Origin: an uncultured Roseicyclus sp.
Lineage (GTDB): Bacteria > Pseudomonadota > Alphaproteobacteria > Rhodobacterales > Rhodobacteraceae
DNA: 64,000 nt
Reading direction: 5' to 3'
Assembly: GCA_947491935.1 (NCBI GenBank)
Contig: CANLLF010000003.1
Coordinates: 186,001-250,000 of the forward strand
The notes below the pieces were generated by a model that worked only from the letters and a program-made list of their open reading frames with translations, made no database searches and was not told where the DNA came from. Shown piece after piece: positions 48,584-63,728 of the stretch. Positions within the stretch are counted from its first letter, which is position 1, and every line of letters begins with the position of its first letter. The position numbers and the translations under genes are program-made.

Positions 48584-49960
48584 CTATGGCCTGACGTATC
48601 GTCCGCCGCCCGGCACCCCGGTCACATCACCGTCCCTGAACACGTTGCGTCCCGCAAGGATCGTTTCACACACCTTGCCGCGCAGAATGCGCCCGTAGAA
48701 CAGATGCGCGACCTCGCGGGCATGGGTGTGCATCGTTTCGGGGCTGAACATGGTTTCACCTTTCAGATCCACAATCGTCACGTCCGCTTGGCTGCCCGGC
48801 AGAAGCGCGCCTTTGGACGGGTAGAGGCCATAGCGTTTCGCCCCATTGGCGCAGATCAGATCGTGTGCCCCCTTGAGGGTCAGGCGACCGCGCGATACGG
48901 CGTCGAGCATGGCGGGCAGGATGAACTCGATGCCGGGAACGCCGGGCGGCGCGCCGGGAAAGTCGCCGTCTGCCGCCTGTTTTTCTGCCTTGGCGAACGG
49001 CGCGTGGTCGGTCGTGACGTAGGTGATCACGCCATCTTCGATGGCTTGCCACAGCGCGTCCTGATCGGCTTGGTGGCGGATGGGCGGGTTGACCTTGGCG
49101 TAGATCCCGGCCTTGGCTACATCCGTTTCCGTAGCGAACAGGTATTGCGGGCAGGTCTCCGCCGTGAAGTCCGAGGTTCCGGCGAAGGCGCGCAGCACGG
49201 CGACGGTTTCCGCACTGGTGACATGGGCGATGTGGAGTTTCGCCTGCGTCTCAATGTTCATCGTCAGGAGCTTGGCGACGGCCACGGATTCGCAAATGGC
49301 CGGGCGGGACTTGCCATGGGTCGCGGCGTCAGCAGGGTCGAGCGCCTTGGCCGCATCCTCGAAATGGGCCAGCAACTGCGCGCTTTCGGCGTGAACGACG
49401 ATGGGCAGATCCGTGTCGGCCAGAAGCCGCAAGGCCCGCAACTGATCCGCCTCATCGGGAAAGGCGAGTCCTTCGAATTCATCGGCACGACCGGGCGGGG
49501 AGGGTGTGGTGAAGATCTTCCACGCGATACAGCCCAGATCCATCATCTTGTCCCGGCTCGCCTCGGTCAGATCGCCGGGGGCCGCATAAAGCGCGAAGTC
49601 GATCACGGCGTTTTCGGAAAAATGATCGCGGCGGCGCGCCAGTTCCTCGGGCGTGGAGCAGCAGGGTTTGGAGATCGGCATCTCGAACAGCGTCGTGATG
49701 CCCCCTGCCGCTGCGGCGCGGGTTTCGGATTGGACCGTGCCGCGTTCGGGATAGGCGGGCGCGCGGACATGGAAATGGATATCGACGATGCCGGGCAGAA
49801 TCGTCTTTCCGGTGGCGTCAATGGTTTCCGCGGCATCCGGTGCCGTGCCGGGCGCGTAGATGCCCGCCACTTTGCCATTCGCCAGGCCGAGATCAACCTG
49901 CGCCAACCCGTCGGGCAACAGAACCTCTCCGCCCGCGATCAACGTATCCAACCCGCTCAT
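48584..49960 (-). CDS. Allantoinase/dihydroorotase-like cyclic amidohydrolase
   Basis: A 458-residue metal-dependent cyclic amidohydrolase. Metal-site elements: H62-x-H64 in GIVDIHFHVR, carboxylatable lysine K148 in CIAWKIF, H190 in VVHAES, H246 in AHVTS, and D318 in TTDHAPFAK. All are in place, so it is likely active on a cyclic amide such as a hydantoin, dihydropyrimidine or allantoin. A P-Q-Y-L segment replaces the P-H-Y-L of many allantoinases. Last gene of the eight-gene leftward operon. ATG 49960 overlaps the stop of the preceding gene. Confidence 0.88.
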   Translation of the reverse strand: MSGLDTLIAGGEVLLPDGLAQVDLGLANGKVAGIYAPGTAPDAAETIDATGKTILPGIVDIHFHVRAPAYPERGTVQSETRAAAAGGITTLFEMPISKPCCSTPEELARRRDHFSENAVIDFALYAAPGDLTEASRDKMMDLGCIAWKIFTTPSPPGRADEFEGLAFPDEADQLRALRLLADTDLPIVVHAESAQLLAHFEDAAKALDPADAATHGKSRPAICESVAVAKLLTMNIETQAKLHIAHVTSAETVAVLRAFAGTSDFTAETCPQYLFATETDVAKAGIYAKVNPPIRHQADQDALWQAIEDGVITYVTTDHAPFAKAEKQAADGDFPGAPPGVPGIEFILPAMLDAVSRGRLTLKGAHDLICANGAKRYGLYPSKGALLPGSQADVTIVDLKGETMFSPETMHTHAREVAHLFYGRILRGKVCETILAGRNVFRDGDVTGVPGGGRYVRP

Positions 49961-51378
49961 TTCAGGCCCAACTCGGTGAGCGCCTTTGCCACACCGTCGA
50001 GATTGGTCAGCTTCATGGACGCATAATTGGGCGACAGCACGACCCCATGCCCGCCCGCGCGATAGGTCGCCATGACCGAGCGATAGGCGATATCCGGCGT
50101 GCATTTCGCCTGATCCGAGCGGACCCGTGGCGCATCGATGCCCAGGCCCATGAAGACCTTGGCCTTGCCGTGCACCCCCTTCAACGCCTCGGCGCACTGG
50201 CCATAAACGTAGGTATCCGGATCAAGGCCGTCCTGCACGACGCTGTCCAGATCCGAGCCCTGAATGCCCAGGATCCCATCGAGCACCTTCATCGCCACTG
50301 CGGGATCAAAATCGCGCAGGATCGTCTTCTGGAAGAAGCCGAATTCCTTGTGCCAGATTTCACCGGATTGATGCTGATAGGTGATCGGCTTGACCCAATC
50401 GGCATACATCGTCTGTTCGTCCCACGGCCATTGGGCGCGGCGGAAGATATTGAAATGATTGCGGTTCCAGATGTTCAGCCCAAAGGGCAGGTCGGGCTTG
50501 CACCATTTCACCAACCCGTAGAGCTCCCGGTCCAGATCCTTGTTTCGCTCCAGCCAGAAGCGTTCCCAGATCAGAACTTCGGGGTGCTCCAGCAGCGTGC
50601 GGATGAAGGTGATAAACGCACCGTCATCGAACTCCTTGCCGCCAAGGGCGTCCTGCATGAAGCCATACATCGCTATGCAGGCGCGGCGGCAGGCCTCCAC
50701 ATCGATGCCGCGGGCGATGGCCTCATCGCGGGCGGCTTCCGAGAAATCACCTGGCGCCTGGCCTTGCATCATCTGGTCCAGCGGCGAGTTCCGCTCGTTA
50801 CACCACATGATCCCATCAAGATCGTAATTGCGCACCTGATCCTCAATGATCGCATGCATCCAGTTGCGATAATCGGGGTTCGATGTGCTGGGTTCGTCCT
50901 TGCGGCGGCCGAACACGTCGACCTCCATACAGGTCGCAAGATTGGGGATATCGACCGCGCTGGCGGAGCCATGACCGGCATATTTGAAGAACGGCTCCAT
51001 CAACTCGACATAGACTTTCATCTCGCGCTTATGGGCTTCGGGGATCACCAGATCGAGGATATCGATCCCTTCCATCTCCTTATCCGCGGCGCGGAACTCC
51101 TTGATCAGCGTCTTGGAGTAATAACGTGGATCGGGCTCGAAATAGGCGCCGCCTTTCATCGTGAAGGGCTCCGGCACGCCGTGATCGGGCCAGCCGTCCA
51201 GTTCATGGGCGATGGAGCGTCCGGTCTTCAGGCCAAGCCAGCTGACCGTGCCGAGCATCAGGACATTCACGCCGACCCGGTCCTTCAGGGTGTCGAGGAC
51301 AGTCTCCACGCCTTCATCGATGAAACTGATCGGGCTGACCTGAATACCCACGAATTTCTCATCGGGGTTCGGAGTCAT
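49957..51378 (-). CDS. Uncharacterised TIM-barrel-like protein, possibly glycosidase-related
   Basis: A 473-residue soluble protein with no signal peptide. The alternation of hydrophobic strands with acidic loops (VNVLMLGTVSWLG, MKVYVELMEPFF, LDGIMWCNERNSPLDQM, HGVVLSPNYASMKL) looks like a TIM barrel of the glycoside-hydrolase-like superfamilies, with several candidate acidic residues. No exact family recognised. Its start overlaps the preceding aminotransferase and its end overlaps the amidohydrolase. This position argues for an enzyme or carrier-binding role in the same pathway rather than polysaccharide breakdown. Confidence 0.75.
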   Translation of the reverse strand: MTPNPDEKFVGIQVSPISFIDEGVETVLDTLKDRVGVNVLMLGTVSWLGLKTGRSIAHELDGWPDHGVPEPFTMKGGAYFEPDPRYYSKTLIKEFRAADKEMEGIDILDLVIPEAHKREMKVYVELMEPFFKYAGHGSASAVDIPNLATCMEVDVFGRRKDEPSTSNPDYRNWMHAIIEDQVRNYDLDGIMWCNERNSPLDQMMQGQAPGDFSEAARDEAIARGIDVEACRRACIAMYGFMQDALGGKEFDDGAFITFIRTLLEHPEVLIWERFWLERNKDLDRELYGLVKWCKPDLPFGLNIWNRNHFNIFRRAQWPWDEQTMYADWVKPITYQHQSGEIWHKEFGFFQKTILRDFDPAVAMKVLDGILGIQGSDLDSVVQDGLDPDTYVYGQCAEALKGVHGKAKVFMGLGIDAPRVRSDQAKCTPDIAYRSVMATYRAGGHGVVLSPNYASMKLTNLDGVAKALTELGLK

Positions 51379-52559
51379 GGGCGGCCTCCCTTATGGGCGT
51401 TGATGAAGCGTTTGATGCGGCCCATGGCCTCCTTGATCAGGGGCAGGGGTTGCAGGTAGGAGATGCGGATGAAATCGCTGTCGGGTTCGCCAAACATGTC
51501 GCCGGGGAAGACCATCACACCCGTTTCGCGGAGCAGGTTTTCACAGAAGGATTTGGCCTTCATGCCCGTGGCCGAGATGTTGGTGTAGATGTAGAACGCC
51601 CCGCCCGGCGCGCCGTAGCTGAGGCCCGCGTCGCTAAGCGCCTGCATCAGGTACGCGCGGCGTTCTGCATAGGCCGCGAATGTCGCCTCCATCTCATCCT
51701 GCGGGCCGGTCAGGGCAGCGAGGGCGGCGAATTGTGAGATGGTGCAGGTGTTGATCGACAGCGTATGGCGCGGCTCCGTCAGCTTCTCCACGAAATCGGC
51801 AGGCGCGGCCATGTAGCCCACGCGCCAGCCGGTCATGGCGTAGGTCTTGGAGAAGCCGTTGAGCGTGATCGTGCGCTCTTTCATGCCCGGTAAAGTGGCC
51901 AGCGAAAGGTGTTCGTGGGGCGGGTAGATCAGCTTGGCATAGATCTCATCGGCGATGATCAGGATGTCGTGTTTCACGGCCAGATCCGCGATCTGCCGGA
52001 TCACATCGGGCGGCGTCACCGCGCCCGTGGGGTTGTTGGGGGAGACCAGCACGAACATCCGGGTCTTGTCGGTGATACGCGCCTCGATCTCCGCCACATC
52101 CAGCGCGAAATCGTCTTTCTGGTAGGTCGGCACCGGGATCGGCGTGCCGCCGCACATCTGCACCGCCGTGTCGTAGGTGGTGAAACGCGGCGAGGTGATC
52201 AGCACTTCGTCACCGGGATGCACAAGGCCCAACATGCACAGCATGATGCTTTCCTGCACACCGGCCGTCACGATGATCTCATCCGCGCTGTAGTCCAGCC
52301 CGTATTCGTCCTTCAGATTGGCGCAGATCGCCTCCCGTAATGCGGGCAAACCGGTGGGGCCGGTGTAATGGTGCTGATTGTCGTCAAGCGCCTGTTTCGC
52401 CGCGTCGACCACATGGGCAGGGGTGTGGAAATCCGGGTCGCCCCGGCCCAGGGCGATCACGTTGTCGAGGGTACTGGCGATCTCCAGCATCCTGGTGCGA
52501 AACGCGCCGTCTTCCTCGACGATGCGTGGGGCGGTGCGGTCATGCAGAAGCGATCCCAT
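51375..52559 (-). CDS. Class I/II aminotransferase (AspC-like)
   Basis: A 394-residue fold-type I PLP aminotransferase. Motifs: ALGRGDPDFHTPAHVVDAA, YTGPTGLPALREAI, VSPNNPTGAVTPP, IADEIYAKLIY, and the PLP lysine in TLNGFSKTYAMTGWRVGYMAAP. It closely resembles the enzyme at 59572, so the regulon encodes two related aminotransferases. ATG 52559 overlaps the stop of the amidohydrolase gene. Confidence 0.93.
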   Translation of the reverse strand: MGSLLHDRTAPRIVEEDGAFRTRMLEIASTLDNVIALGRGDPDFHTPAHVVDAAKQALDDNQHHYTGPTGLPALREAICANLKDEYGLDYSADEIIVTAGVQESIMLCMLGLVHPGDEVLITSPRFTTYDTAVQMCGGTPIPVPTYQKDDFALDVAEIEARITDKTRMFVLVSPNNPTGAVTPPDVIRQIADLAVKHDILIIADEIYAKLIYPPHEHLSLATLPGMKERTITLNGFSKTYAMTGWRVGYMAAPADFVEKLTEPRHTLSINTCTISQFAALAALTGPQDEMEATFAAYAERRAYLMQALSDAGLSYGAPGGAFYIYTNISATGMKAKSFCENLLRETGVMVFPGDMFGEPDSDFIRISYLQPLPLIKEAMGRIKRFINAHKGGRP

Positions 52560-53794
52560 CAATGCATCCTCTTGCCGTCGATGAAGGTCATCTCGACCTT
52601 CTCCAAAGCGCTCAAATCCTGATCTGGCTTGCCGTCCACAACGATCAAGTCGGCGAGCTTTCCGGCCTCCAGCGTGCCAAGCGTGTCGCCGAACCCGTTC
52701 AGGACCGCTGCCCGCGCGGTGATGGCGCGCAACGCATCGAGGTTGTCCGGGCACACGCCCACCTCCACCATGAAGCCAAGCTCCGGCACGATGCGGTCGT
52801 GTTCCACCGCAGGGGAGCCTGCATCGGTGCCGAACACAATCGGTACACCCGCTTTCGCGGCGCGGACCAGCCCATCGAAGCGGGACTTATCGGCGACGGC
52901 CTTCTGGCGCTCTTCGATCTTCCATTCCGGAATACCGAAGGCGCGGGCGATCTCCGGGTTGGCCTGGATCACAAGGGCCGAGAATGTCGTAACGATGGGC
53001 AATTTCTTGTCCAACAGGATCTGGATCGTCTCGTCCGTCATCGACCCGCCATGTTCAACGCAATCAACACCGAATTCCGCCACGCGGGCGATGCAATCGT
53101 TGTAGGTGGCATGGGCTGTGATCGGCAGGTTGTTGCGGTGGGCTTCGTCGATGACGGCGCGCAATTCATCATCGGTGAATTCCAGCGTGTCGTGGCAGGC
53201 CATGATCTTGATCAGATCGGCGCCGCCCTTCACCTGATCGCGCACGGCGCGGCGCATCTCGTCGGCACCCGAAGCCTCGCGACAAACCCAATAGGTATGG
53301 CCACCGGTCTGGATGATGCTCTCGCCAGAGACCAGCAGGCGGGGGCCCGGAAAGATACCCTGCGCCACGGCCTGCTTGGTGAAGAGGTTGGCGTCATGCA
53401 CGCCCAGATCGCGGACCAGCGTAATCCCCGCGCGCAGGCTTTTGATCATGTTGCCCGCGGCCTTGTAGGCGCGGATTTCGGGCGGGTCGAACATGCTTTG
53501 CTGGCTCAATTCGTGAATGCCGTCCCAGCTCAGATGCGCGTGGCTGTTCATCATGCCGGGCATCAGAGTCTTGCCATTTGTATCAATGATGGCAGCATGT
53601 TCCGGGGTGACGTTCATGTCGGACCGCAGACCAACGCCGGCAATCTTGCCCTCCTTCAGATGCACGTAGCCGTCTTCAATCACCTCATCACCGACGCATG
53701 TGATGACCCGCCCGTAGAAGACGCAATCCACGGCCTCGGCCTCAAACATCGGTTTGGTGATCTTCTGATATTTCCAGGCGGCTGGTTCGGGCAT
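52559..53794 (-). CDS. Imidazolonepropionase-like/prolidase-type amidohydrolase
   Basis: A 411-residue metal hydrolase. Metal motif HxH in MPGMMNSHAHLS, lysine in GADLIKIMACHD, His in ITAHATYND and CVEHGGSMTDE, and Asp in FGTDAGSP. The IGTLEAGKLADLIV-like segment LGTLEAGKLADLIVVDG is typical of this group, which includes Zn-dependent Xaa-Pro/Xaa-Arg dipeptidases. A GAGGAGC ribosome site supports ATG 53794, with TTG 53800 as an alternative. Lies between the M24 protein and the aminotransferase genes in the operon. Confidence 0.88.
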   Translation of the reverse strand: MPEPAAWKYQKITKPMFEAEAVDCVFYGRVITCVGDEVIEDGYVHLKEGKIAGVGLRSDMNVTPEHAAIIDTNGKTLMPGMMNSHAHLSWDGIHELSQQSMFDPPEIRAYKAAGNMIKSLRAGITLVRDLGVHDANLFTKQAVAQGIFPGPRLLVSGESIIQTGGHTYWVCREASGADEMRRAVRDQVKGGADLIKIMACHDTLEFTDDELRAVIDEAHRNNLPITAHATYNDCIARVAEFGVDCVEHGGSMTDETIQILLDKKLPIVTTFSALVIQANPEIARAFGIPEWKIEERQKAVADKSRFDGLVRAAKAGVPIVFGTDAGSPAVEHDRIVPELGFMVEVGVCPDNLDALRAITARAAVLNGFGDTLGTLEAGKLADLIVVDGKPDQDLSALEKVEMTFIDGKRMH

Positions 53795-53806
53795 CTTCAA
53801 GGCTCC

Positions 53807-54970
53807 TCAGATGGCGATGGTGCGGGCGTCGATGGGGGTGTTGGCTTGAAAGCGGGATGGAATATCCACGCCGTCTTCTGTGACGATCATTGTATTGATG
53901 GTGCGGTATCCATCGACGCCGGGTCGATAAACGCCCGGCTCGTTGGAGAAAATCATATGTGTCTTGATCTGTGTGGGGTCGCCGGGGGCAAGCCAGGGGG
54001 CCTCGTGGCCCTCAAGACCCATCCCGTGCCCAATCCTGTGGCGGATGGCGTCACCAAGGCCAGCGGCTTGTAACGCATCCAAGGCCGCGTCGTTGGCCTC
54101 GGTACATGTCCGACGCGCCGCGCAGGCCGCAACGGCCGCGTCATTGCAGGCCTCCATCGCGTGCATGATCCGGCGCTGCTCGGCGCTGATCTCCCCCAGG
54201 ATTAGGGTCACGCCACTTTCGGCGTGGTAGCCACCAAGGCTGGCACCAATGCCCGCAATCAGCGTCTCACCGGGCTGCGGGACGCGTTCCAGAACCGCAC
54301 CATGGGGCAAGGCGGCGCGGGGGCCGGAATGGACCGATGCAGTAATGCCCATAGGCGTGCCGGCAAAGGCGGCCTTATGTTTGGCGAACAGCGCGCCTCG
54401 CGCATGGGCCATGGCATCGGCCATCAGATCCGCTTCGGTGCCGCCTTGAGTGATAATATCGCCCGCCGCTGCGTGCAGGCGGGTCAGGAACAGATCGGCG
54501 AAAGAGGCGGCCTCAATCGTCAGCGCGATCTCTTCGGGTTCCTTGATCGTGCGGGCCAGCATGGCGTGGTCGGTCAGGTCGAGATGGTTGAGCTTGCCGC
54601 GTGCCGCATCCAGAAGGGTGGCATCGAGCTGATCAATGGCGATGGACCTGCGCCCGATCTGATCGAGCATCCACAAAACAGCAGGCACCTCGCCGGGGAA
54701 TTCGTCGTAGAACCGTAGGTCGGCCAGGCCCGTCCCCTCGGCATTCTCCCGCTCCAGGCCCGGCAGCATCAGGATCGGGTCGCCATCGACCGGCAGCCAG
54801 ACACCCATCGGACGCTCATTGGCGGAGAGAAACAGGCCTGTCGCATAGGCCAGATTGGGCGCGCGCAGGAGCAATAGCCCGTCCAGCCCCGCTGCCTCTG
54901 CGCGGGTGCGCAACCGGTCCCGCGCACGGGCGAAAAAGCCCGCATCAAGGGGGCGGGGACCGTCGCTCAC
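53807..54970 (-). CDS. M24 'pita-bread' family protein with altered metal site (creatinase/ectoine-hydrolase-like)
   Basis: A 387-residue protein with an N-terminal creatinase domain (residues 1-135) and the M24 catalytic fold (about 145-387). Of the five metal ligands normal for Xaa-Pro peptidases (Asp, Asp, His, Glu, Glu), only H315 (RIGHGMG) and E344 (NEPGVY) are kept. The first Asp is G240 in AGIGASLGGYH, the second is E251, and the last Glu aligns to I358. Loss of metal ligands is known for creatinase and the ectoine hydrolase group, which work without metal. GTG 54970 overlaps the next gene's stop. Confidence 0.85.
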   Translation of the reverse strand: MSDGPRPLDAGFFARARDRLRTRAEAAGLDGLLLLRAPNLAYATGLFLSANERPMGVWLPVDGDPILMLPGLERENAEGTGLADLRFYDEFPGEVPAVLWMLDQIGRRSIAIDQLDATLLDAARGKLNHLDLTDHAMLARTIKEPEEIALTIEAASFADLFLTRLHAAAGDIITQGGTEADLMADAMAHARGALFAKHKAAFAGTPMGITASVHSGPRAALPHGAVLERVPQPGETLIAGIGASLGGYHAESGVTLILGEISAEQRRIMHAMEACNDAAVAACAARRTCTEANDAALDALQAAGLGDAIRHRIGHGMGLEGHEAPWLAPGDPTQIKTHMIFSNEPGVYRPGVDGYRTINTMIVTEDGVDIPSRFQANTPIDARTIAI

Positions 54971-56055
54971 AGCGTGTCGCCGGTGTAGGGGCCTTTGCCG
55001 TCCAGCACGGTCTTCAGGCCCAACTCGCGCCCCAAGGCCTGCAGATCTGACAGCACGACATCGTCGATGGGCACGCCATTCTCTGCCTTGGCGGCGGTCC
55101 GTCGCGCCTCTTGTTCACCCGGCACGAGGATTTCATCGAAGCCCGGGCGCAGGGTGCGCGTCTTGGCCATCTGGACGAATTCGCCCATGCGGGATTCATA
55201 GTCTGCCACATCCATGAACCACGAAATATCAATGGCTTGGAAGTAATGGCTCACGTCGAGCTTCATTGGGTCGGAATAGGGCGTCAGCCCGAAGCCACCG
55301 CCCGATAAGACGCCGGTCAGGGCCTCGGTCATAAAGGCCAGTCCGTAACCCTTGTGACCGCCGATCCCCAGAAGCGGGCCTTTCAGCGCGGCGGCGGGAT
55401 CATCTGTTTCCTCTCCATCGGGGGTGATCGCCCAATCAAGCGGCATCTTCTTCCCCTCGCGGATCAGCCAGTTCATCATGCCTTTTCCGGCGGTGGTGAT
55501 CGCGATGTCGAGGACGGTTGGAAAACCCTGATCGGATGGTGCGGCAATGGACCAGGGATTGGTGCCCGTCACACCCTCGCGGCCGCCCCAGGGCGCCATT
55601 TCAGGGCCCGCATTGGTGAAGGCTATGCCGATGCAGCCATGATCCAGCGCCTGACAGGCGTGAACAGCGCTGGAGCCGTAATGGGTGGAATTGCGCACGA
55701 TCACCGTGCCGATCCCGCCCTCTTTCGCCTTCTTGATGGCCAGCCGCATCGCCTTGGCGGCCGCGATCGTGCCGATGCCATTATGGGCATCCACCAGCGC
55801 CAGCGCAGGGCCTTCCTTGAGGATGCTCCACGGGGCGCGGGTGTTCACCTCACCCTTGCCGATGCGCTCGCGGTATCGGCGCAGGCGCGCGACGCCCTGG
55901 CCCTGGCCGGGATGAAAGCGCAGTTCGGAGAAGATCAGGGCATCCGCAAAAATCCCTGCATCTTCGGCCGTCAGGCCAAGCGCTTCGAACCCCTCCGCCA
56001 CAAAGGTGCGTAGCTGTGCGCGATCAACATTTGTCATCGGGATGGCTTGGGTCAT
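54967..56055 (-). CDS. Ldh/YlbC-family NAD(P)-dependent oxidoreductase (malate/ureidoglycolate dehydrogenase type)
   Basis: A 362-residue member of the lactate/malate dehydrogenase-2 family, which includes ureidoglycolate dehydrogenase AllD. Features: HYGSSAVHACQALDHGCIGIAFTNAGPEMAPWGGREGVTGTNPWSIA, the pattern that sets the NAD pocket, and GPLLGIGGHKGYGLAFMTEALTGVLSGG. The reaction is likely oxidation of a 2-hydroxyacid or the reverse imine reduction. Operon position suggests a role beside the cyclic amidohydrolase. It begins inside the stop of the DUF4438 gene. Confidence 0.88.
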   Translation of the reverse strand: MTQAIPMTNVDRAQLRTFVAEGFEALGLTAEDAGIFADALIFSELRFHPGQGQGVARLRRYRERIGKGEVNTRAPWSILKEGPALALVDAHNGIGTIAAAKAMRLAIKKAKEGGIGTVIVRNSTHYGSSAVHACQALDHGCIGIAFTNAGPEMAPWGGREGVTGTNPWSIAAPSDQGFPTVLDIAITTAGKGMMNWLIREGKKMPLDWAITPDGEETDDPAAALKGPLLGIGGHKGYGLAFMTEALTGVLSGGGFGLTPYSDPMKLDVSHYFQAIDISWFMDVADYESRMGEFVQMAKTRTLRPGFDEILVPGEQEARRTAAKAENGVPIDDVVLSDLQALGRELGLKTVLDGKGPYTGDTL

Positions 56056-56930
56056 GCGGAGAGTCCCAGAAGCTGGGCGATGTTGGTGCCCGGCGCGCCG
56101 AAGCAGCCCAATTGGCCCGCCGGGGCCGTCATCACCACCGTCATGCCCGGCCCGTATCCGGCGCGGGGGCCGTCCGTCTGGCCGACGATCCCGATGCTCA
56201 TGGCACCGCGCAGGTAGCCGTGGTTGTACCGGCTGTCCGTGTCTTCGATGGCCACGACATCGCCAAGGCGGAGTTGGTCGAGGCCGTGGGCCGTCAGCTC
56301 TGCCCGGTCGGTCGATTGAATGTGGAGCGAGCCGCCCTCGGAGGTCAGGCCCGCGCCCGCTCCGACCATATGCGGGGGGACGGTGGCCACGACGCCCATC
56401 TTCAGCACATCGCCATCCATGTGCTTGGGCAGCGCGTCGAACAAGGCGGGGGACAGGGATTTGAACGCGACATCGGGGCAGCTTGGAACGGACAGTCCGA
56501 CACCTTCGCTTTTGACGAGGATCTGATCATCCACCGCGATCTTGCGGCGCGTTTCCATATCGAAATGCACGATAACCTGATCCGAAAAGCGCCCGGATTT
56601 GCCGGTGACCACACCCTTCGCGCCCTTTGCCGCGCCGCTGACCACCATTGCCTCGTTCCCGACACAGGCGAAGACGTTCAGGCCGCGGTTTTTGTTGGCG
56701 TCCGGATGTGCGATGCTGATTGATGGGTGGATGCAATCGCCCGCCCATCCAAACGCGCTATCCCCGACCGAGACGTTGTAAACGATGCCACCGAACGTCG
56801 GCCAGAGGAAGGCCTTGCCATCGGCATCGAGGCGGTAGGGTTCGGCGGGCAGGCCGGACAGCGACGGGTTGGCGACCTGGCCGAGGACCGAGACGGTGAC
56901 GATATCGGCGGCGTTGGTTTCAATGCTCAT
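56052..56930 (-). CDS. DUF4438 family protein (second copy)
   Basis: A 292-residue soluble protein of the uncharacterised DUF4438 family. It aligns with the neighbour upstream: FAWGGIVYNVSVGDSAFGWAGDCIHPSISI corresponds to MYGITYNVRCGDRAFGWAGDHVEPGVSI, and VGNEAMVVSGAAKGAKGVVTGK to IGNSAMVTSGMAAGAQGIVVGE. Both end ...IAQLLGLSA / LATLLDLGA. It lacks a signal peptide. Function is unknown. Tandem copies suggest a heteromer. Starts 1 base after the stop of the other copy. Confidence 0.87.
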   Translation of the reverse strand: MSIETNAADIVTVSVLGQVANPSLSGLPAEPYRLDADGKAFLWPTFGGIVYNVSVGDSAFGWAGDCIHPSISIAHPDANKNRGLNVFACVGNEAMVVSGAAKGAKGVVTGKSGRFSDQVIVHFDMETRRKIAVDDQILVKSEGVGLSVPSCPDVAFKSLSPALFDALPKHMDGDVLKMGVVATVPPHMVGAGAGLTSEGGSLHIQSTDRAELTAHGLDQLRLGDVVAIEDTDSRYNHGYLRGAMSIGIVGQTDGPRAGYGPGMTVVMTAPAGQLGCFGAPGTNIAQLLGLSA

Positions 56931-56931
56931 A

Positions 56932-57795
56932 TCAGGCTCCGAGATCGAGGAGAGTGGCGAGGTTCGCGGCGGGATCGACGGTGAAATCGATCTCCCCGTT
57001 TCGCGCGGTCATCAGGGTGAGGATGCCGGGGCCATGGCCTGTCATCACGCTGTCCCCATGGATGCACAGGCAAATGGAAACGGCCCCTTCGCGATAGGAG
57101 CGGCCCCAATGGTGATCCGCATGGCGAATGGCGATCACATCGCCCAGGCGCATCTGATCGATCCCCAGTTCGGCCATCAGCGCGCGGTCGCCCGACATCA
57201 GGTCCTGATCCACATATTCGGAATTCAGCTCCGCCCCCGATCCCATGATGCGGATCGGAAGCTCCATCGCGACATTCACATGCAAGCGGCCGTCGGTTTC
57301 GGTGATGCCAAGCGCATGAAACAGGCGCGGGCTCATCTTCTTGAGCGCCACATCGGGATAATCCGTGAGGCGCAGGCCCTGGCCTTTGGTCATCACCTGA
57401 ATGCGGTCACCGGGCGCCATGACGGCATGGGCCTCGGGATCAAACTGCACCAGGATACGCGCATGTTCGCCCACAACGATGCCCTGCGCCCCCGCGGCCA
57501 TGCCAGAGGTGACCATCGCCGAATTCCCGATGCAATTGAGGTAGTGGAGCGCGTGGTGGCGGCCCGAATTGGCGTCATCATCTATGGACACGCCCGGCTC
57601 CACATGGTCGCCCGCCCATCCAAAGGCCCGGTCGCCGCAGCGCACGTTATAAGTGATCCCATACATGCCCGGCAGCACGGTCGCACGGCCATCGGGGTGG
57701 GGGATGTATTGGCCGGGCCGCACGGCGGGCGTGGTGATCACACTGGCGACGGCCATCTCGACCAAGGCGGTTTCGTTGGTGGCGGGGCTTGGCAT
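56932..57795 (-). CDS. DUF4438 family protein (first copy)
   Basis: A 287-residue paralogue of the next gene. Start ATG 57795 (MPSPATNETALVEM) follows GGAAAGGA. A longer frame from 57936 has no ribosome site. Conserved segments: YNVRCGDRAFGWAGDHVEPG, LHYLNCIGNSAMVTSGMAAGAQGIVVGEHARI and YREGAVSICLCIHGDS. First gene of the leftward operon. The promoter with an overlapping GntR operator lies 80-110 bases upstream. Confidence 0.87.
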   Translation of the reverse strand: MPSPATNETALVEMAVASVITTPAVRPGQYIPHPDGRATVLPGMYGITYNVRCGDRAFGWAGDHVEPGVSIDDDANSGRHHALHYLNCIGNSAMVTSGMAAGAQGIVVGEHARILVQFDPEAHAVMAPGDRIQVMTKGQGLRLTDYPDVALKKMSPRLFHALGITETDGRLHVNVAMELPIRIMGSGAELNSEYVDQDLMSGDRALMAELGIDQMRLGDVIAIRHADHHWGRSYREGAVSICLCIHGDSVMTGHGPGILTLMTARNGEIDFTVDPAANLATLLDLGA

Positions 57796-57877: not shown

Positions 57878-57906
57878 AGTATATTGTCGACATTGCGCTT
57901 GTCCAA
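57878..57906 (-). promoter_or_regulatory. Promoter of the leftward catabolic operon
   Basis: On the minus strand, TTGGAC (57906-57901) and TATACT (57883-57878) with a 17-base spacer, close to consensus. The operator 57883-57894 overlaps the -10 and the spacer, the usual place for a repressor. Confidence 0.7.
57883..57894. promoter_or_regulatory. Candidate GntR operator 3 (ATTGTCGACATT)
   Basis: Third copy of the ANTGTCGACANT near-palindrome, in the 218-base gap between the divergent DUF4438 and carboxypeptidase operons. Overlaps the leftward promoter. Confidence 0.62.
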
Positions 57907-58013: not shown

Positions 58014-59540
58014 ATGAGCTATGCCGGATTGATCGAAGCCACGGGGCGTGTGAACGATTTTCTGAATGCCGGATCGGTGTTGTCGTGGGATGCGCGCACC
58101 ATGATGCCCAAGGGCGGGGCGGAGACCCGCGCCAAGCAATTGGCGACCCTGGCCGTGGCCGCGCGCAACCTGCTGTGCTCGGACGAGATGAAGCGTGCGC
58201 TGGAGGGGGCGGAGGCGGAGGTTGCCGGCAAGCCCGAAGACAGCCCCGAGGCACGGATCGTGGCCCAGGTGCGTGAGGCCATCGACTATCACGAACGTAT
58301 CCCGACGGAGCTTTTGCGCCGGAAGACAGAGCTTGGGGCGTCGGCGCATGAGGTTTGGGCGGAGGCCCGGGAAAAAGCGGATTTCTCGATTTTCGCGCCC
58401 GCCCTGACGACCATGGTCGATATCAACCGCGAGATGGCCCAGGCCATCGGCTATGAGGCGCATCCCTATGACGCGCTGATGTACCGGTTTGAGCCGGGCA
58501 CCACCCATGCCGCCCTGACGACGCTCTTCGCCCGCCTGCGGGAGGGCATGATCCCGCTGGTCCGGGCCATTGCCGGGGCGGAAAAGCCGCGCTCCGACTT
58601 CCTGTTTCGCGATTATCCGGTCGATGCGCAGATGGACTTCGCGCTCAATATGGCCAAGCGCATCGGCTATGACATGGATCGCGGGCGGCTCGACACCACC
58701 GTGCATCCGTTCGAAGTGTCCTTTACCCGCAATGACGTGCGCATTACGACGCGGGTGAACAAGAATTACATGCCGATGTCGCTCTTTGGGGCGCTGCACG
58801 AGGCCGGGCACGCGATGTATGAGCAGGGGGTCGATCCCGTCTATACCCGCACACCGCTCGCGACGGATCTGATCAGCCTCTACGCCGTGGGAGGTGTCAG
58901 CTTTGGCGCCCATGAAAGCCAATCGCGCCTGTGGGAGAACCATGTGGGCCGGTCCCGCGCATTCTGGGCCAACCATATGGGTGACATCAAAGCCGCCTAT
59001 CCCAGCACGCTGGATGACGTAAGTGACGAGGAGTTCTACCGCGCCGTGAACCGGTCCGAGCCGTCCTTCATCCGGGTGGAGGCTGACGAGCTGACCTATG
59101 ATTTCCATATCATGCTGCGCTGTGAACTGGAGGCGAAGCTGGTCGATGGCACTCTGGAGGTCGCGGACCTGCCGGAGGCGTGGAATGCCGCGATGAAAGA
59201 CTATCTCGGCGTCGATGTGCCGGACGATGCCAATGGCGTTCTGCAGGATGTGCATTGGTCCTCGGGGCAGATCGGGACGTTCTGCAATTACACGATCGGC
59301 AACATCATGGCCGCGCAATTGTTCTCTACCGCCGCGGAGGAAAACCCCGGGATCCAGACCGCCCTTGACGGCGCCGATTACACACCCCTGCGGGATTGGC
59401 TGACCGACAAGGTGGCCCAACATGGCCGCCGCTTCTCGCGCGATGAGTTGCTGGAAAAGGCCACGGGCCGTCCGCTCGATCCCGAACCCTATATCGCGCA
59501 TCTGACCGACAAGTTTTCTGACATCTACGCCCTCGCGTGA
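58014..59540 (+). CDS. M32 metallocarboxypeptidase (Taq/PfuCP type)
   Basis: A 508-residue cytoplasmic carboxypeptidase of family M32. The zinc motif HEAGH is at residues 262-266 (GALHEAGHAMYEQG), followed by the ESQSRLWENHVGRS segment with the third ligand and DEVTYNFHI-like ADELTYDFHIMLR. It removes C-terminal amino acids from peptides with broad specificity. ATG 58014 is chosen because GGGAGAA lies 10 bases upstream; a longer frame starts at 57990. First gene of the rightward operon of the regulon. Confidence 0.93.
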   Translation: MSYAGLIEATGRVNDFLNAGSVLSWDARTMMPKGGAETRAKQLATLAVAARNLLCSDEMKRALEGAEAEVAGKPEDSPEARIVAQVREAIDYHERIPTELLRRKTELGASAHEVWAEAREKADFSIFAPALTTMVDINREMAQAIGYEAHPYDALMYRFEPGTTHAALTTLFARLREGMIPLVRAIAGAEKPRSDFLFRDYPVDAQMDFALNMAKRIGYDMDRGRLDTTVHPFEVSFTRNDVRITTRVNKNYMPMSLFGALHEAGHAMYEQGVDPVYTRTPLATDLISLYAVGGVSFGAHESQSRLWENHVGRSRAFWANHMGDIKAAYPSTLDDVSDEEFYRAVNRSEPSFIRVEADELTYDFHIMLRCELEAKLVDGTLEVADLPEAWNAAMKDYLGVDVPDDANGVLQDVHWSSGQIGTFCNYTIGNIMAAQLFSTAAEENPGIQTALDGADYTPLRDWLTDKVAQHGRRFSRDELLEKATGRPLDPEPYIAHLTDKFSDIYALA

Positions 59541-60783: not shown

Positions 60784-60793
60784 GGACCGCAAG

Positions 60794-61285
60794 ATGAATG
60801 TGAAATCCGACAATCCGAATGTCAAAAGCATCAAGCACATGGCCTTTGCCGTCAGCGATGCGGAAAAGGCGCTGGAGGCCTATGCCAAGTTCCTCCACGT
60901 GCCCGCCGACACCGAGATCACCCATTTTCCCAAATCCGGCAACAAGGTCGCGCTCTTCTATCTGGGCGGGATCGAATACCAGCTCTGCCAATCCACCCAG
61001 GAAGGGGGCCGGTTCGACGCCTGGATCAAGGAGCGTGGGGCCGAAGGCCTGCATCACATCTGTTATGAGGTCGACAATATCGACGATGCGCTGGCCCATG
61101 CCCAGGCGCAGGGCGCATCGTTGCGCGAGTGCAAGGCGTGCAAGAAGACCGGGTCCCACGCGCATCCCGAAGGCTGGGTTGCGTTCCTCGATAATGATGC
61201 GGGCGGGATCGAGATCGAGTTCATGCAGGTCTACACGCCTGAGCAGTTGAAGGCTTGGGAAGACAGCGCGGCGGAGGCGGTATGA
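60794..61285 (+). CDS. VOC (glyoxalase/methylmalonyl-CoA epimerase-like) family protein
   Basis: A 163-residue metal-binding vicinal oxygen chelate protein with two betaalphabetabetabeta modules. Likely ligands: H in IKHMAFAV, Q/C in YQLCQS, H in GLHHICYEV and E in EIEFMQVY. It resembles methylmalonyl-CoA/ethylmalonyl-CoA epimerases and lactoylglutathione lyases, but the substrate here is unknown. It overlaps the next gene by four bases. ATG 60794 after GAGGACCGCAAG. Confidence 0.8.
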   Translation: MNVKSDNPNVKSIKHMAFAVSDAEKALEAYAKFLHVPADTEITHFPKSGNKVALFYLGGIEYQLCQSTQEGGRFDAWIKERGAEGLHHICYEVDNIDDALAHAQAQGASLRECKACKKTGSHAHPEGWVAFLDNDAGGIEIEFMQVYTPEQLKAWEDSAAEAV

Positions 61286-62280
61286 GCACCTCAGCAGGCG
61301 AAAACGTCACGGTCGGCACCGCCACGGCGGCCCCGGGCGAAATGGTGCGCGGAGCGATTGCGGCGGGGGATCTGGCCGGTGGCGTGAAGGTCGAAATCCC
61401 CGTACTTGTCATCAACGGCGCGGGGGCGGGCCCGACGTTCTGGGTCAATGCCGCAATCCACGGCGATGAACCTGAGGGCCCACTGGCCTGCGCATTGGCG
61501 TCGAAACGGATCGATCCCGCGAAGTTGCGCGGCGCGGTCATCATGGTGCCCTGCGTCAATCCACTGGCCTTTTCGGCGGCCGAGCGCGGTAACCCGCTCG
61601 ATACCTTCACCTATGACATGAACCGGATCTATCCCGGCAAGCCCGATGGCTATTTCTCAGACCGGGTTTGTGATGCCCATTGGCAGGCGATGAAGGATGT
61701 GGCGGATCTGGAGATTTCCATCCATTCCGGCGGCGCGCATTCCTTCCTCGACAAGGCAATCTTCGTGGATGAACGCCCCGAAAGCGTGGAACTGGCCAAG
61801 GCGATGGGCGAGGGCTGGGGCTGCATCATGTCCAACTTCACCAAGTCCGGCAGCCCGATGGCGGCGATGAACAATGCGGGCAAGGTCGGCATCACGGTTG
61901 AGCTTGGCGGGCGGTCCTACACCTCACCCGAACGGTTCCGCTACGTTGGGGAAGAGCTGGCCAAGTCGATACTCAACATCTGCTACCACTATGACATGCT
62001 CGACGGGCAGGCGACTTATCCGTCTGATGCCACCAAGGGGCAGCAAGAGGCGCTGCTAGCGCCCGCCTCGGGGATATTCCTGCCGGAGCCGGGCGTGGAT
62101 TTCCTGACCATGATGAAGAAGGGCGACAAGATCGCCAGCATCATCAACATCTTCGGGGATGAGGTGGGTGAGCTTCATGCGCCTGCCGATGGCATGTTCT
62201 TTGGCCTGCGGGCGTTGCCCAATGTGAACCGGGGCGATTGGTGCTGCTTTTTCAACAAGGTTGAGGGGCCGCGTGCGTAG
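61282..62280 (+). CDS. Succinylglutamate desuccinylase/aspartoacylase-family deacylase
   Basis: A 332-residue zinc-dependent deacylase of the AstE/AspA family. Zinc ligands: H60 and E63 in AAIHGDEPEGP and H148 in ISIHSGG. Substrate-side MVPCVNPLAF and DMNRIYPG segments are typical. The family includes N-acetyl-aspartate and N-acetyl-diaminobutyrate deacylases. A C-terminal region (KKGDKIASIINIFGDEVGELHAPADGMFFGLRALP) is a capping beta domain. ATG 61282 overlaps the VOC stop. Confidence 0.9.
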   Translation: MSTSAGENVTVGTATAAPGEMVRGAIAAGDLAGGVKVEIPVLVINGAGAGPTFWVNAAIHGDEPEGPLACALASKRIDPAKLRGAVIMVPCVNPLAFSAAERGNPLDTFTYDMNRIYPGKPDGYFSDRVCDAHWQAMKDVADLEISIHSGGAHSFLDKAIFVDERPESVELAKAMGEGWGCIMSNFTKSGSPMAAMNNAGKVGITVELGGRSYTSPERFRYVGEELAKSILNICYHYDMLDGQATYPSDATKGQQEALLAPASGIFLPEPGVDFLTMMKKGDKIASIINIFGDEVGELHAPADGMFFGLRALPNVNRGDWCCFFNKVEGPRA

Positions 62281-62307: not shown

Positions 62308-63219
62308 ATGAACCGGCTGCGCGATCTTGCGGGTTACGGGGCCAATCCGCCTGATATCCGGTGGCCCAACGGTGCGGGTCTGGCCGTCAACTTCGTGCTG
62401 AATGTCGAAGAAGGCTCCGAATATTCCGTTGGTGACGGGGACGGGCGCTCGGAATCCGCACTGAGTGAGGTGCGCGCCTCCCGCGTGCCGCAGGGCGCCC
62501 GCGATCTGGCTGCGGAATCGATGTATGAATATGGCAGTCGCGTGGGGTTCTGGCGGATCCATGATCTGTTCCGGTCGCGCGACCTGCCGATGACGATCTT
62601 CGCCAGTGCCCTTGCGCTGGAGCGCGCGCCCCAGATTGCTCAGGCCATTGCGAAGACGGATTGGGATATCTGCGCCCACGGATACCGCTGGGTGGAGCAT
62701 TACCACCTTACCCCCGAAACCGAAGCGGAGCAGATTGCGCAGGCCTATGACAGCCTGACACAAACCATTGGTCGGGCACCGCGCGGCTGGTACTGCCGTT
62801 ATTCCGCCTCCACCGCCACGCGTGGCCTGATCGTGGCCCATGGCGGCTTTGACTATGACAGTGACGCCTATAACGACGATCTGCCCTATTGGACCGAGGT
62901 GGACCGCAACGCCCATCTGGTCGTGCCCTATACAATGGTCAACAACGACGCCAAGTTCCTGTCGGGCGATGTGTTTTCGGGGCGGGATTTCGGCGATTTC
63001 CTGATCGACGGGTTCGATGTTCTGGCCGCTGAGGCACAGACCAGAACGCGAATGATGTCCATCGGCCTGCATTCCCGCATCATCGGCCATCCGGGGCGGT
63101 TGGCCGGGCTGATCCGGTTCCTCGACCACATTGCCGGGCGGTCAGACGTCTGGATCTGCGGGCGTGATCAGATCGCGGACTTCTGGCGTGAGGCACAGCC
63201 GCCGGGGCGTGGCGGATGA
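62308..63219 (+). CDS. Polysaccharide-deacetylase-fold hydrolase, PuuE (allantoinase)-like
   Basis: A 303-residue protein of the NodB/PuuE group. PuuE allantoinases are non-metal-coordinated by the classic HxH but share this fold. Visible: MNRLRDLAGYGANPPDIRWPNGAGLAVNFVLNVEEG, YEYGSRVGFWRIHDLFRSRDLPMTIFASALALER, DICAHGYRWVEHY and GWYCRYSASTATRGLIVAHGGFDYDSDAYNDDLPYW. These match PuuE strongly in the first half. It precedes an AllA homologue, which supports a ureide role. It overlaps the next gene by four bases. Confidence 0.85.
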   Translation: MNRLRDLAGYGANPPDIRWPNGAGLAVNFVLNVEEGSEYSVGDGDGRSESALSEVRASRVPQGARDLAAESMYEYGSRVGFWRIHDLFRSRDLPMTIFASALALERAPQIAQAIAKTDWDICAHGYRWVEHYHLTPETEAEQIAQAYDSLTQTIGRAPRGWYCRYSASTATRGLIVAHGGFDYDSDAYNDDLPYWTEVDRNAHLVVPYTMVNNDAKFLSGDVFSGRDFGDFLIDGFDVLAAEAQTRTRMMSIGLHSRIIGHPGRLAGLIRFLDHIAGRSDVWICGRDQIADFWREAQPPGRGG

Positions 63220-63728
63220 CGGGCCTGTCCGTCGCCCTTCAAGCGCCGGATCCAAAGGCGTTTGCGCCTTACGGCCAGTTGGTCATGCCCCCCGATGCGC
63301 CGGGAACACGCCGGTTTTTCAGCGACGCGCTTCAGGCAAGGAACGAGGCCAGCGCGCCGGTCCTGCATGTGAACCACGTGAACCCGCAAAACCTCCCACT
63401 CAAGGTGACCGGGATCGAGCGGCACCCCCATGCGGCCCAGTGTTTCTTTCCCATTGATGTCGCGCGGTATGCGGTGATGGTGATGCCCTCGGACGCGGCG
63501 GGGGACCCGATGCTGGATCAGGCGCTCGGCTTCCTGATGCCGGGCACGATGGGCGTCATCTTCCATCCCGGCATCTGGCATCTGGGGGCCACGGTGTTCG
63601 ACCGGCCCGGCCATTTCACCGTTCTGATGTGGCGCGGCGGACCGGTGCAGGACGATGAATTTCGCACAATTGCACCTTTGACCTTGCATGATCCGACCAA
63701 CACAGGGGCCGGGGCGGCACTGCCATGA
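63216..63728 (+). CDS. allA: Ureidoglycolate lyase
   Basis: A 170-residue cupin-fold enzyme that splits ureidoglycolate into glyoxylate and urea. Pattern: LQAPDPKAFAPYGQLVMPP, VNHVNPQNLPLKVTGIERHPHAAQCFFPI, GTMGVIFHPGIWHLGATVF and MWRGGPVQDDEF. Motifs and length match the AllA family. Overlaps both neighbours by four bases, so it belongs to the operon. Confidence 0.9.
   Translation: MTGLSVALQAPDPKAFAPYGQLVMPPDAPGTRRFFSDALQARNEASAPVLHVNHVNPQNLPLKVTGIERHPHAAQCFFPIDVARYAVMVMPSDAAGDPMLDQALGFLMPGTMGVIFHPGIWHLGATVFDRPGHFTVLMWRGGPVQDDEFRTIAPLTLHDPTNTGAGAALP

What the first reader, a model, noticed from the sequence alone, without database searches (positions are those of the whole stretch)
48584..63728. 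Possible uncharacterised ureide/peptide catabolic regulon
Two divergent operons combine a cyclic amidohydrolase, an Ldh/AllD-family dehydrogenase, a PuuE-like enzyme, an AllA-type ureidoglycolate lyase, an aspartoacylase-type deacylase, two aminotransferases, peptidases (M32, M24-like), two DUF4438 proteins and a TIM-barrel-like protein, plus a peptide-type importer. Several members have homologues in allantoin degradation, yet the peptidases and deacylase point to an N-acylated or peptide-linked substrate. No pathway I know uses this exact set.
Basis: partly seen in the sequence, partly recalled or inferred. Interest (0 to 1): 0.8.

Follow-up and report, generated by a model that had tools for sequence, protein, structure and literature searches.

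The report
Conserved catabolic regulon of unknown substrate
A block of about 26 neighbouring genes, with its own importer and switch, is largely kept together in distantly related bacteria and most likely lets them take up and eat one kind of small peptide-like compound that has not been identified.

Summary

"One regulon" is supported. All 7 other carriers found among 292 genomes of the order hold 25 or 26 of the 26 genes, and related sets occur in Gemmatimonadota, Acidobacteriota and rhizobial records. A palindromic site, TTGTCGACAA-like, has three exact copies in the window, in the three expected control gaps, and recurs in 37 of 45 homologous gaps. Binding was not tested.

"Allantoin catabolism" is not supported: the genome has a canonical PuuE-UraD/AllA locus elsewhere, and the cluster's copies are diverged.

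Best reading: a dedicated, horizontally transferred pathway for an amide-linked conjugate with a peptide-like part, a cyclic imide/ureide-like part and probably a sugar-like part. The substrate is not identified.

The parts
40556..42124 (-). substrate-binding protein, SBP_bac_5 (peptide/opine type)
   Evidence: Pfam SBP_bac_5 229.1 bits; among the nearest PDB entries YliB, AppA, AccA and DppA types
42248..42970 (-). GntR-family regulator with FCD effector domain
   Evidence: Pfam GntR + FCD; kept in the cluster in all 7 relatives
43131..43142 (.). operator-like site 1, ATTGTCGACATT on the - strand, about 160 bp in front of GntR
   Evidence: exact match; core motif also in front of GntR in 6 of 7 relatives
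44043..45011 (-). Opp/Dpp-type ABC ATPase (DppF-like)
   Evidence: ABC_tran + oligo_HPY
45008..46069 (-). Opp/Dpp-type ABC ATPase (DppD-like)
   Evidence: ABC_tran + oligo_HPY
46194..46205 (.). operator-like site 2, between DppD-like and DppB-like genes
   Evidence: exact match; 9-mers shared with site 3 in own genome and 6 of 6 relatives compared
46383..47357 (+). permease (DppB-like)
   Evidence: BPD_transp_1
47369..48292 (+). permease (DppC-like)
   Evidence: BPD_transp_1 + OppC_N
48584..49960 (-). AllB-like: hydantoinase/allantoinase-type cyclic amidohydrolase
   Evidence: Amidohydro_1; AllB model 281.9 bits, below cut-off 357.85; best PDB L-hydantoinase 1gkr
49957..51378 (-). TIM: 473-aa TIM-barrel protein, glycoside-hydrolase-like, no family assigned
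   Evidence: only GHL10 below cut-off; AF2 pLDDT 86.5; Foldseek Cwp19, PgaB, GH42, GH164
51375..52559 (-). AT1: class I aminotransferase
   Evidence: Aminotran_1_2; below the cut-off of each of the 25 NCBIfam models shown of 86
52559..53800 (-).
53807..54970 (-). M24 metallopeptidase-like (creatinase/prolidase fold)
54967..56055 (-). Ldh_2 oxidoreductase
   Evidence: Ldh_2 356.6 bits; nearest models sulfolactate DH 228.6 and ureidoglycolate DH types, all 5 below cut-off
56052..56930 (-). DUF4438 protein a
   Evidence: Pfam N and C domains; TM1086 3dcl/3n99
56932..57795 (-). DUF4438 protein b
   Evidence: Pfam N and C domains
57883..57894 (.). operator-like site 3, between the two divergent catabolic operons
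   Evidence: exact match; strict core motif in 37 of 45 related gaps
58014..59540 (+). M32 carboxypeptidase
   Evidence: Peptidase_M32 580.8 bits
59572..60783 (+). AT2: class I aminotransferase
60791..61285 (+).
   Evidence: Glyoxalase_4; TIGR03081 66.6 bits, below cut-off 114.95
61282..62280 (+). AstE/AspA-type deacylase, DoeB-like
   Evidence: AstE_AspA_cat 89.4 bits; DoeB model 99.6, below cut-off 402.7; PDB DoeB 6twl
62308..63219 (+). PuuE-like (cyclic-imide/allantoinase clade of the NodB fold)
   Evidence: TIGR03212 356.7 bits, below cut-off 424.6; PDB 1z7a/3cl6 284 bits
63216..63728 (+). AllA-like (ureidoglycolate lyase family)
   Evidence: PF04115 68.6 bits
63725..64000 (+). start of NAD-epimerase gene; the operon continues outside the window (W coordinates continued): NAD epimerase 63725-64660, GFO1 64651-65676, GFO2 65694-66776, SDR 66773-67486, M20 67483-68835, M14 68857-70527
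   Evidence: L004; present in all 7 relatives except M14 in G235 and G285

Best explanation
A dedicated, substrate-induced catabolic regulon that moves between bacteria largely as one block. An Opp/Dpp-type ABC importer brings in a small amide-linked conjugate. An FCD-type GntR regulator sits on three TTGTCGACAA-like operators (in front of itself, between the importer halves, and between the two divergent catabolic operons) and most likely lets go when an organic-acid or amino-acid-like intermediate accumulates. Inside the cell, peptidase-type enzymes (M14, M20, M32, M24 and the prolidase-like amidohydrolase AH2) trim amino acids. The AllB-like and PuuE-like enzymes open a cyclic imide/ureide-like ring, the AspA-like enzyme removes an acyl group, and the AllA-like enzyme splits a ureidoglycolate-like (N-acyl-alpha-hydroxyglycine-like) product. 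A glycoside-hydrolase-like TIM protein, two GFO/IDH/MocA dehydrogenases, an NAD epimerase, an SDR and (in most relatives) a DapA-like aldolase handle a sugar-like part. Two aminotransferases, the Ldh_2 enzyme and the VOC epimerase feed the carbon skeletons into central metabolism. Shown here: gene content, conservation, the sites as sequence, a pattern of co-transfer for 11 genes, paralogy to the true ureide pathway. Inferred: that GntR binds the sites, direction (catabolic), order of steps, and all substrates. The two DUF4438 proteins have no assigned step.
For: 25 or 26 of 26 genes in 7 of 7 other carriers in the order. In 80 TIM loci from Alphaproteobacteria, Gemmatimonadota, Acidobacteriota, Trueperaceae and Chloroflexota, AH2 lies near TIM in 75 and AT1 in 70. 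The second half of the operon also occurs in Gemmatimonadota, Acidobacteriota, Devosia, Rhizobium and Roseitalea contigs. Three exact operator-like sites in the window, all in the expected gaps (0 in 60 Markov simulations); the 4 other exact genome hits of the 11-mer lie inside predicted ORFs; motif in 37 of 45 homologous gaps, including 5 of 5 Gemmatimonadota. For all 11 genes compared, two Rhodobacterales isolates are closer to Gemmatimonadota copies than to six other Rhodobacterales isolates. GH-like fold of TIM; GFO2 nearest to levoglucosan dehydrogenase, with a C-glycoside enzyme and glucose-fructose oxidoreductase among the ten hits. Hydantoin-type partners in relatives: HyuA/HyuB and, in a Trueperaceae variant, a carbamoylase over its cut-off. 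Catalytic-type motifs, recalled and drafted from the window's own proteins, are present in every orthologue for 10 of 13 motifs and in 7 of 8 for the other three (weak evidence).
Against: No substrate, intermediate or activity was shown. TIM's similarity to glycoside hydrolases is by fold only (9-14% identity, TM 0.42-0.51 by query length), so the sugar part may be wrong. NADepi (35-49%) and AllA (43-59%) are poorly conserved in the records. Several loci lack DUF4438, PuuE, AllA or M24, and 8 of 25 genomes searched have only a remote AspA match (48% or less). AT1 correlates least with the other enzymes (r 0.55-0.65; 0.48 with ABC_D), so parts have been exchanged. 8 of 45 gaps lack the strict motif, among them the one Acidobacteriota gap examined, and the 9-base motif also occurs once or more elsewhere in the 60 kb of 6 of 7 relatives. 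DUF4438 itself is found without this cluster in 11 of 11 genomes examined outside the order.
Confidence: 0.5

Rival explanations
1. General peptide and hydantoin nitrogen scavenging: a broad-range salvage island of peptidases and cyclic amidohydrolases without a single substrate; the oxidoreductases are passengers.
For: Five peptidase-type genes and a dipeptide-type importer; variants add an M55 peptidase, an amidase, HyuA/HyuB and a carbamoylase.
Against: The sugar-type genes are kept in the same operon in relatives of other phyla; the two catabolic operons share one conserved operator-like site, and of 7 exact genome matches only the cluster's three lie outside predicted ORFs, which argues for one inducer.
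Confidence: 0.2
2. Muropeptide catabolism: import of peptidoglycan fragments, with TIM as a Cwp19-like enzyme and GFO2 acting on 1,6-anhydro sugars, peptidases on the stem peptide and aminotransferases on diaminopimelate-like products.
For: Foldseek's best hit is Cwp19, a lytic transglycosylase by the title of PMC6016235 (search listing only); GFO2 nearest levoglucosan dehydrogenase; M55 D-aminopeptidase in a Trueperaceae variant; DapA-like aldolase.
Against: PuuE-like, AllB-like and AllA-like enzymes have no role in it; no NagZ, AmpD or LdcA type gene was recognised among the 26 genes; TIM identity to Cwp19 only 14%.
Confidence: 0.1
3. Allantoin or purine-ureide utilisation.
For: PuuE, AllA, AllB and AllD family relatives side by side.
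Against: A canonical PuuE-UraD plus AllA locus is elsewhere in the same genome; cluster copies fall below the equivalog cut-offs and differ at conserved motif positions; no allantoate amidohydrolase, UraD or HIU hydrolase was recognised among the 26 genes.
Confidence: 0.04
4. A biosynthetic cluster (for example a siderophore or modified peptide with its own importer) rather than a catabolic one.
For: Two PLP enzymes whose near models include GntC; epimerases and oxidoreductases.
Against: Most enzymes are hydrolases; no NRPS, ligase or exporter recognised in the 26 genes; FCD-GntR regulators usually control catabolism (recalled).
Confidence: 0.07

Closest known systems
Canonical allantoin pathway (PuuE-UraD, AllA; own genome contig C2)
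   Same: PuuE-fold enzyme directly followed by an AllA-fold enzyme; Ldh_2 and cyclic amidohydrolase relatives
   Different: Cluster copies diverged and below equivalog cut-offs; no UraD, HIU hydrolase or allantoate amidohydrolase recognised; embedded with peptidases, importer and sugar-type oxidoreductases
Ectoine degradation (DoeA/DoeB/DoeD type)
   Same: M24-fold hydrolase, AspA-type deacylase related to DoeB and an aminotransferase in one cluster
   Different: M24 scores only 31-34 bits to ectoine hydrolase models, DoeB model 99.6 of 402.7 needed; about 20 further genes
Ergothioneine/hydantoin utilisation (ErtD hydantoin-5-propionate amidohydrolase, HyuA/HyuB, carbamoylases)
   Same: Hydantoinase-fold enzyme; HyuA/HyuB and a carbamoylase next to the cluster in some relatives
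   Different: ErtD models 239-272 bits of 600-650 needed; no carbamoylase recognised in the window's cluster
GHL10/GH153-type TIM barrels (Cwp19, PgaB C-terminal domain; the GH153 label is recalled)
   Same: Predicted fold of the TIM protein
   Different: 9-14% identity; not over the Pfam GHL10 cut-off; export signals were not tested
TM1086 of Thermotoga maritima (PDB 3dcl, 3n99), DUF4438
   Same: DUF4438 a: 35-37% identity and TM 0.80-0.83 by query
   Different: TM1086 is deposited without a function name; here two adjacent copies inside a regulon

Membership tests
Canonical allantoin/ureide pathway | PuuE above equivalog cut-off (TIGR03212) | tested here: not met
   356.7 of 424.6 bits; the C2 copy scores 518.9
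Canonical allantoin/ureide pathway | AllA above NCBIfam ureidoglycolate lyase cut-offs | tested here: not met
   best 64.8 of 160 bits; over the broad Pfam PF04115 cut-off only
Canonical allantoin/ureide pathway | AllB above TIGR03178 cut-off | tested here: not met
   281.9 of 357.85 bits
Canonical allantoin/ureide pathway | activity on allantoin or ureidoglycolate | not testable with these tools
   needs enzymes
DUF4438 | Pfam PF14505 and PF20999 above cut-off | tested here: met
   both proteins
GntR, FCD/FadR-type regulator | GntR HTH plus FCD domain above cut-off | tested here: met
GntR, FCD/FadR-type regulator | palindromic operator-like sequence next to regulated genes | tested here: met
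   three exact sites; conserved
GntR, FCD/FadR-type regulator | binding of GntR to these sites | not testable with these tools
   needs a gel shift or footprint
Opp/Dpp-type ABC importer | SBP_bac_5, two oligo_HPY ATPases, OppB/OppC-type permeases | tested here: met
GHL10 glycoside-hydrolase-like family (TIM protein) | Pfam PF02638 above cut-off | tested here: not met
   20.6 of 27.9 bits
GHL10 glycoside-hydrolase-like family (TIM protein) | same barrel fold | tested here: met
   Foldseek probability 1.00, TM by query 0.45-0.51 to Cwp19 and PgaB entries
Ectoine degradation cluster | DoeA and DoeB above cut-off | tested here: not met

The most novel reading that the evidence does not exclude
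A previously undescribed pathway, spread by transfer of the whole cluster over at least four bacterial phyla, for a common environmental glyco-ureido or glycated-peptide-like compound class (for example peptides carrying hydroimidazolone-type or other cyclic modifications). It would include a new family of cytosolic glycoside-hydrolase-like enzymes (TIM), re-purposed copies of PuuE and AllA, and the first role for DUF4438 proteins.
Probability: 0.25. Interest if true: 0.85.

Novelty: new variant of a known kind. Interest (0 to 1): 0.62.

Why it matters
About 26 genes largely kept together, with a shared operator-like site, in distant bacterial phyla point to a substrate common enough to be worth carrying a 30 kb pathway for. 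The cluster makes that question directly testable: the importer's binding protein and the regulator should both recognise the compound or its product. It also gives a working context to DUF4438 (solved structure, no function found) and to a TIM-barrel family without a name, and it warns against annotating these PuuE, AllA and AllB copies as allantoin genes.

Tried and rejected
Rejected: allantoin as substrate (canonical locus elsewhere). Rejected: "unrelated adjacent gene sets". Considered and left open for lack of evidence: mycosporine-like amino acids (10 papers, 8 listed, none on such a pathway by title), glycated peptides, muropeptides.

Led nowhere: text searches for DUF4438 (0 papers), TM1086 (7 papers; by title only the crystallisation paper PMC2661377 may concern the Thermotoga protein), combinations of the cluster's enzymes (462 papers, 15 listed; 0 papers). 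The DUF4438 model matched only TM1086 in the PDB at E 0.001 or better (7 chains). The distant TIM homologues on plasmids (2 records, 31%) lie near hydroxyproline-type genes in Granulicella and near a glycerate kinase in Parabacteroides, which did not fix a substrate. DUF4438 outside this cluster often lies near a nitrilase-family gene, which hints at C-N chemistry only.

Identity thresholds were mine. In some searches and 89 rows with stop codons or under 90% coverage were dropped, and one search kept 46 of 80 loci (those with at least 9 of 11 genes). The intergenic coordinates were a few bases off the gene starts; the sites lie well inside them. Predicted ORFs come from my own simple G+C-based gene picker.
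Full report
Anatomy. The window is G000:C3:186001-250000. Reading both strands and the next 16 kb of the same contig, the unit comprises: SBP and GntR (leftwards, 42970-40556); DppD- and DppF-like ATPases (leftwards from 46069); DppB- and DppC-like permeases (rightwards from 46383); a leftward operon DUF4438b - DUF4438a - Ldh_2 - M24 - AH2 - AT1 - TIM - AllB-like (57795 to 48584); and a rightward operon M32 - AT2 - VOC - AspA-like - PuuE-like - AllA-like - NAD epimerase - GFO1 - GFO2 - SDR - M20 - M14 (58014 to about 70527). That is 26 genes; the window cuts the last operon. "Operon" is inferred from orientation and close spacing. The enzymes fall in known superfamilies, but each NCBIfam model shown for them (the best 25 where more matched) stays below its curated cut-off, and TIM, both DUF4438 proteins and M32 (E 0.001) and M14 (E 1e-10) have no NCBIfam match. 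They cannot be given the named functions.

Conservation. DUF4438 occurs in 8 of 292 genomes searched in the order, own included, in 4 of 112 genera, each time as an adjacent pair; 3 further same-genus genomes lack it. In all 7 other genomes the rest of the cluster is there: G166, G007, G243 and G029 keep all 26 genes in the same relative order (other ABC genes are inserted in G243); G235 and G285 lack M14 in the 60 kb fetched; G252 has all 26 but with SBP, permeases and GntR moved into the rightward operon. Six of the 7 have an extra DapA-like gene between AllA-like and NAD epimerase; in G029, as in the window, there is no room for it. In the phylum sample DUF4438 is in 69 of 398 genomes, but in the 11 genomes outside the order that I examined it lies without this cluster. 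In 385 genomes of the class TIM was found in 5, own genome included, two of them at marginal E-values.

A scan of GTDB contigs with a TIM alignment gave 119 pattern matches, 92 relatives, best 80 kept. My grouping from record titles (L096 guessed): 28 Rhodobacterales, 26 other Alphaproteobacteria, 11 Gemmatimonadota, 4 Acidobacteriota, 7 Trueperaceae, 3 Chloroflexota or Gracilibacteria, 1 Enemella. Within the 10 kb flanks AH2 is present in 75 of 80, AT1 in 70, ABC_D in 62, AllB in 57, LDH in 56, M24 in 52, and DUF4438 a, DUF4438 b, M32, AT2 and VOC in 51 each (many loci are cut by contig ends and by the flank limit). Some loci lack members, e.g. both DUF4438 genes in L121 and L136. Stretches fetched further along show VOC, AspA, PuuE, AllA, GntR, NADepi, GFO1 and SBP together in a Gemmatimonadetes contig (L206), an Acidobacteria contig (L210), two Rhizobium (L203, L205), Roseitalea (L207) and Devosia (L208); Aureimonas (L209) lacks the GntR hit, the Rhizobiales isolate AFS087364 (L211) the PuuE hit. 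Trueperaceae carry rearranged or partial variants, the Acidobacteriaceae contig another arrangement, the Gemmatimonadota contig L215 only a 46% AspA match, and the Chloroflexota/Gracilibacteria loci mainly GFO2 - TIM - AH2. Of 25 genomes searched for AspA, 17 have a match at 54% identity or more and 8 only at 48% or less.

Regulation. The two divergent intergenic regions share the 9-mers ATTGTCGAC and TTGTCGACA in the own genome and in 6 of 6 relatives compared (G252, rearranged, was not in that comparison). The 12-mer ATTGTCGACAKT has three zero-mismatch matches in the window, at 43131 (in front of GntR), 46194 (between the ABC halves) and 57883 (between the catabolic operons); with up to 2 mismatches there are 13 matches, against 5.94 (sd 2.73) in shuffles, 1 of 100 shuffles reaching 13. 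No exact match arose in 60 Markov simulations of the window. Genome-wide, TTGTCGACAKT has 7 matches (0 for the reversed control pattern), 3 of them these; the other 4 lie inside predicted ORFs. In front of GntR the 9-base motif is found in the own genome and 6 of 7 relatives; the exception, G252, is the one where GntR has moved inside the operon. In 6 of 7 relatives (not G285) the 9-base motif also occurs once or more elsewhere in the 60 kb. In 45 loci with a measurable DUF4438b/M32 gap, 37 hold the strict motif, including all 5 Gemmatimonadota among them; random same-length windows of the same loci hold it in 37 of 2250 (such windows can overlap the true site). The 8 misses are L101, L103, L114, L118, L119, L123, L125 and L144, the last being the only Acidobacteriota gap in the set. 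The encoded regulator is an FCD-type GntR. Binding is inferred.

Transfer as a block. Pairwise distance matrices of 11 genes over 46 loci correlate at r 0.48 to 0.93 (relatedness alone also produces correlation). Two Rhodobacterales isolates (L120 Pseudotabrizicola algicola, L128 Pseudorhodobacter sp.) are closer to the Gemmatimonadota copies than to six other Rhodobacterales isolates for all 11 genes, e.g. TIM 83% against 72%, DUF4438b 79% against 64%, with small margins for AT1 (77/75%), AT2 (75/73%) and ABC_D (71/68%). For LDH and AT2 they are closer still to Devosia (80% and 78%), and for ABC_D equally close. Two Gemmatimonadota contigs show similar non-cluster ABC genes beside the cluster (by eye), which speaks against simple mis-binning but does not exclude it; the Gemmatimonadota records are MAGs by title.

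What the proteins are. TIM: AlphaFold model with mean pLDDT 86.5 from 41 sequences; the 50 best PDB matches shown are led by Cwp19 and the PgaB C-terminal domain and include GH42-type and GH164 enzymes, at TM 0.42-0.51 by query length and 9-14% identity. An N-E pair (194-195) ends a predicted barrel strand and is invariant in the 41 sequences; E195 is also kept in Granulicella and Parabacteroides. AH2: prolidase/arginine carboxypeptidase/ochratoxinase type. AllB-like: nearest PDB entry an L-hydantoinase. PuuE-like: 284 bits to PuuE allantoinase structures, but with consistent changes from the own genome's canonical copy in all 8 orthologues, e.g. GWYTGR against G(W/Y/F)Y(C/S)RY and LHCR against LHSR (MHTR in G252). 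Two papers, read as passages only, describe PuuE relatives as acting on small cyclic imides (PMC3084791; PMC9304392). AspA-like: nearest DoeB. GFO2: nearest levoglucosan dehydrogenase, with DgpA1 and glucose-fructose oxidoreductase among the ten hits (the first entry's identity as levoglucosan dehydrogenase is recalled, and agrees with the NCBIfam ranking). DUF4438: the model matches only TM1086, i.e. an orphan fold.

Not the allantoin pathway. The own genome has at G000:C2 about 524.1-526.4 kb a 5-hydroxyisourate-hydrolase-like ORF (by eye), a PuuE-UraD fusion (TIGR03212 518.9 bits, over cut-off; UraD part by eye) and AllA (183.9 bits). The cluster's PuuE/AllA pair therefore looks like a re-purposed duplicate acting on a related but different small molecule (inference). 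Hydantoin-type chemistry is further hinted at by HyuA/HyuB genes beside the cluster in several relatives and by a carbamoylase over its cut-off in a Trueperaceae variant.

Mechanism. The best-supported reading is an inducible pathway for an amide-linked conjugate with an amino-acid or peptide part, a cyclic imide/ureide-like part and probably a sugar-like part. The coherence of the regulon I hold at about 0.9; the substrate class at about 0.4-0.5; no specific compound above 0.15. Steps and order are inferred.

Novelty. Searches of the held papers for DUF4438, TM1086 and cluster-type term sets gave no description of this cluster in the listings I saw; I read none of those papers, and subscription papers are mostly outside that library. 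The general kind (importer plus GntR plus catabolic operons) is known; this pathway, its unnamed TIM family and its spread appear undescribed.

Noticed in passing
L227 8102-10447 (G000:C2 about 524.1-526.4 kb): Canonical ureide genes (5-hydroxyisourate hydrolase-like, PuuE-UraD fusion, AllA) lie next to genes that look like the beta-hydroxyaspartate cycle for glyoxylate (recognised by eye, not tested).
   Followed up: partly
L019-L048, L073-L082 (phylum sample, mostly family f38): Outside this cluster DUF4438 often lies near a nitrilase-family gene (CN_hydrolase in the one tested): a 110-residue query hits 20 of the 30 short loci L019-L048.
   Followed up: partly
L004 10530-19510 (W 70530-79510): Next to the M14 gene a further prolidase-like amidohydrolase, a Liv-type ABC transporter, a GAF protein, a UgpC-type ATPase and an argininosuccinate-lyase-like protein; of the 7 relatives only G029 keeps this whole set with the cluster.
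   Followed up: partly
window 35831-38516: Genes that look like a four-carbon acid sugar (otn-type) kinase/aldolase/isomerase set just before the cluster (by eye).
   Followed up: no
window 30929-32934: Adjacent tryptophan 2,3-dioxygenase-like and kynureninase-like ORFs (by eye).
   Followed up: no
L100: A contig titled Enemella evansiae (Actinomycetota) carries a Rhodobacterales-like copy of the cluster (TIM 83%); possibly a contaminated or mislabelled assembly, or a very recent transfer.
   Followed up: no
L124 and L126: Two contigs of one Rhodobacteraceae MAG each carry a copy of the cluster's left part.
   Followed up: no
L083 (Granulicella plasmid), L084 (Parabacteroides plasmid): Distant TIM homologues with N-terminal extensions that look like export signals (by eye), beside hydroxyproline-type genes and an aminopeptidase-P-like gene, or beside a glycerate kinase.
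   Followed up: partly
window 43143-44042: About 0.9 kb without an evident gene between operator-like site 1 and the DppF-like gene; the GntR-to-DppF gap is about 1.1 kb here and in G029 but 0.2-0.35 kb in G166, G007, G243, G235 and G285 (from coordinates).
   Followed up: no
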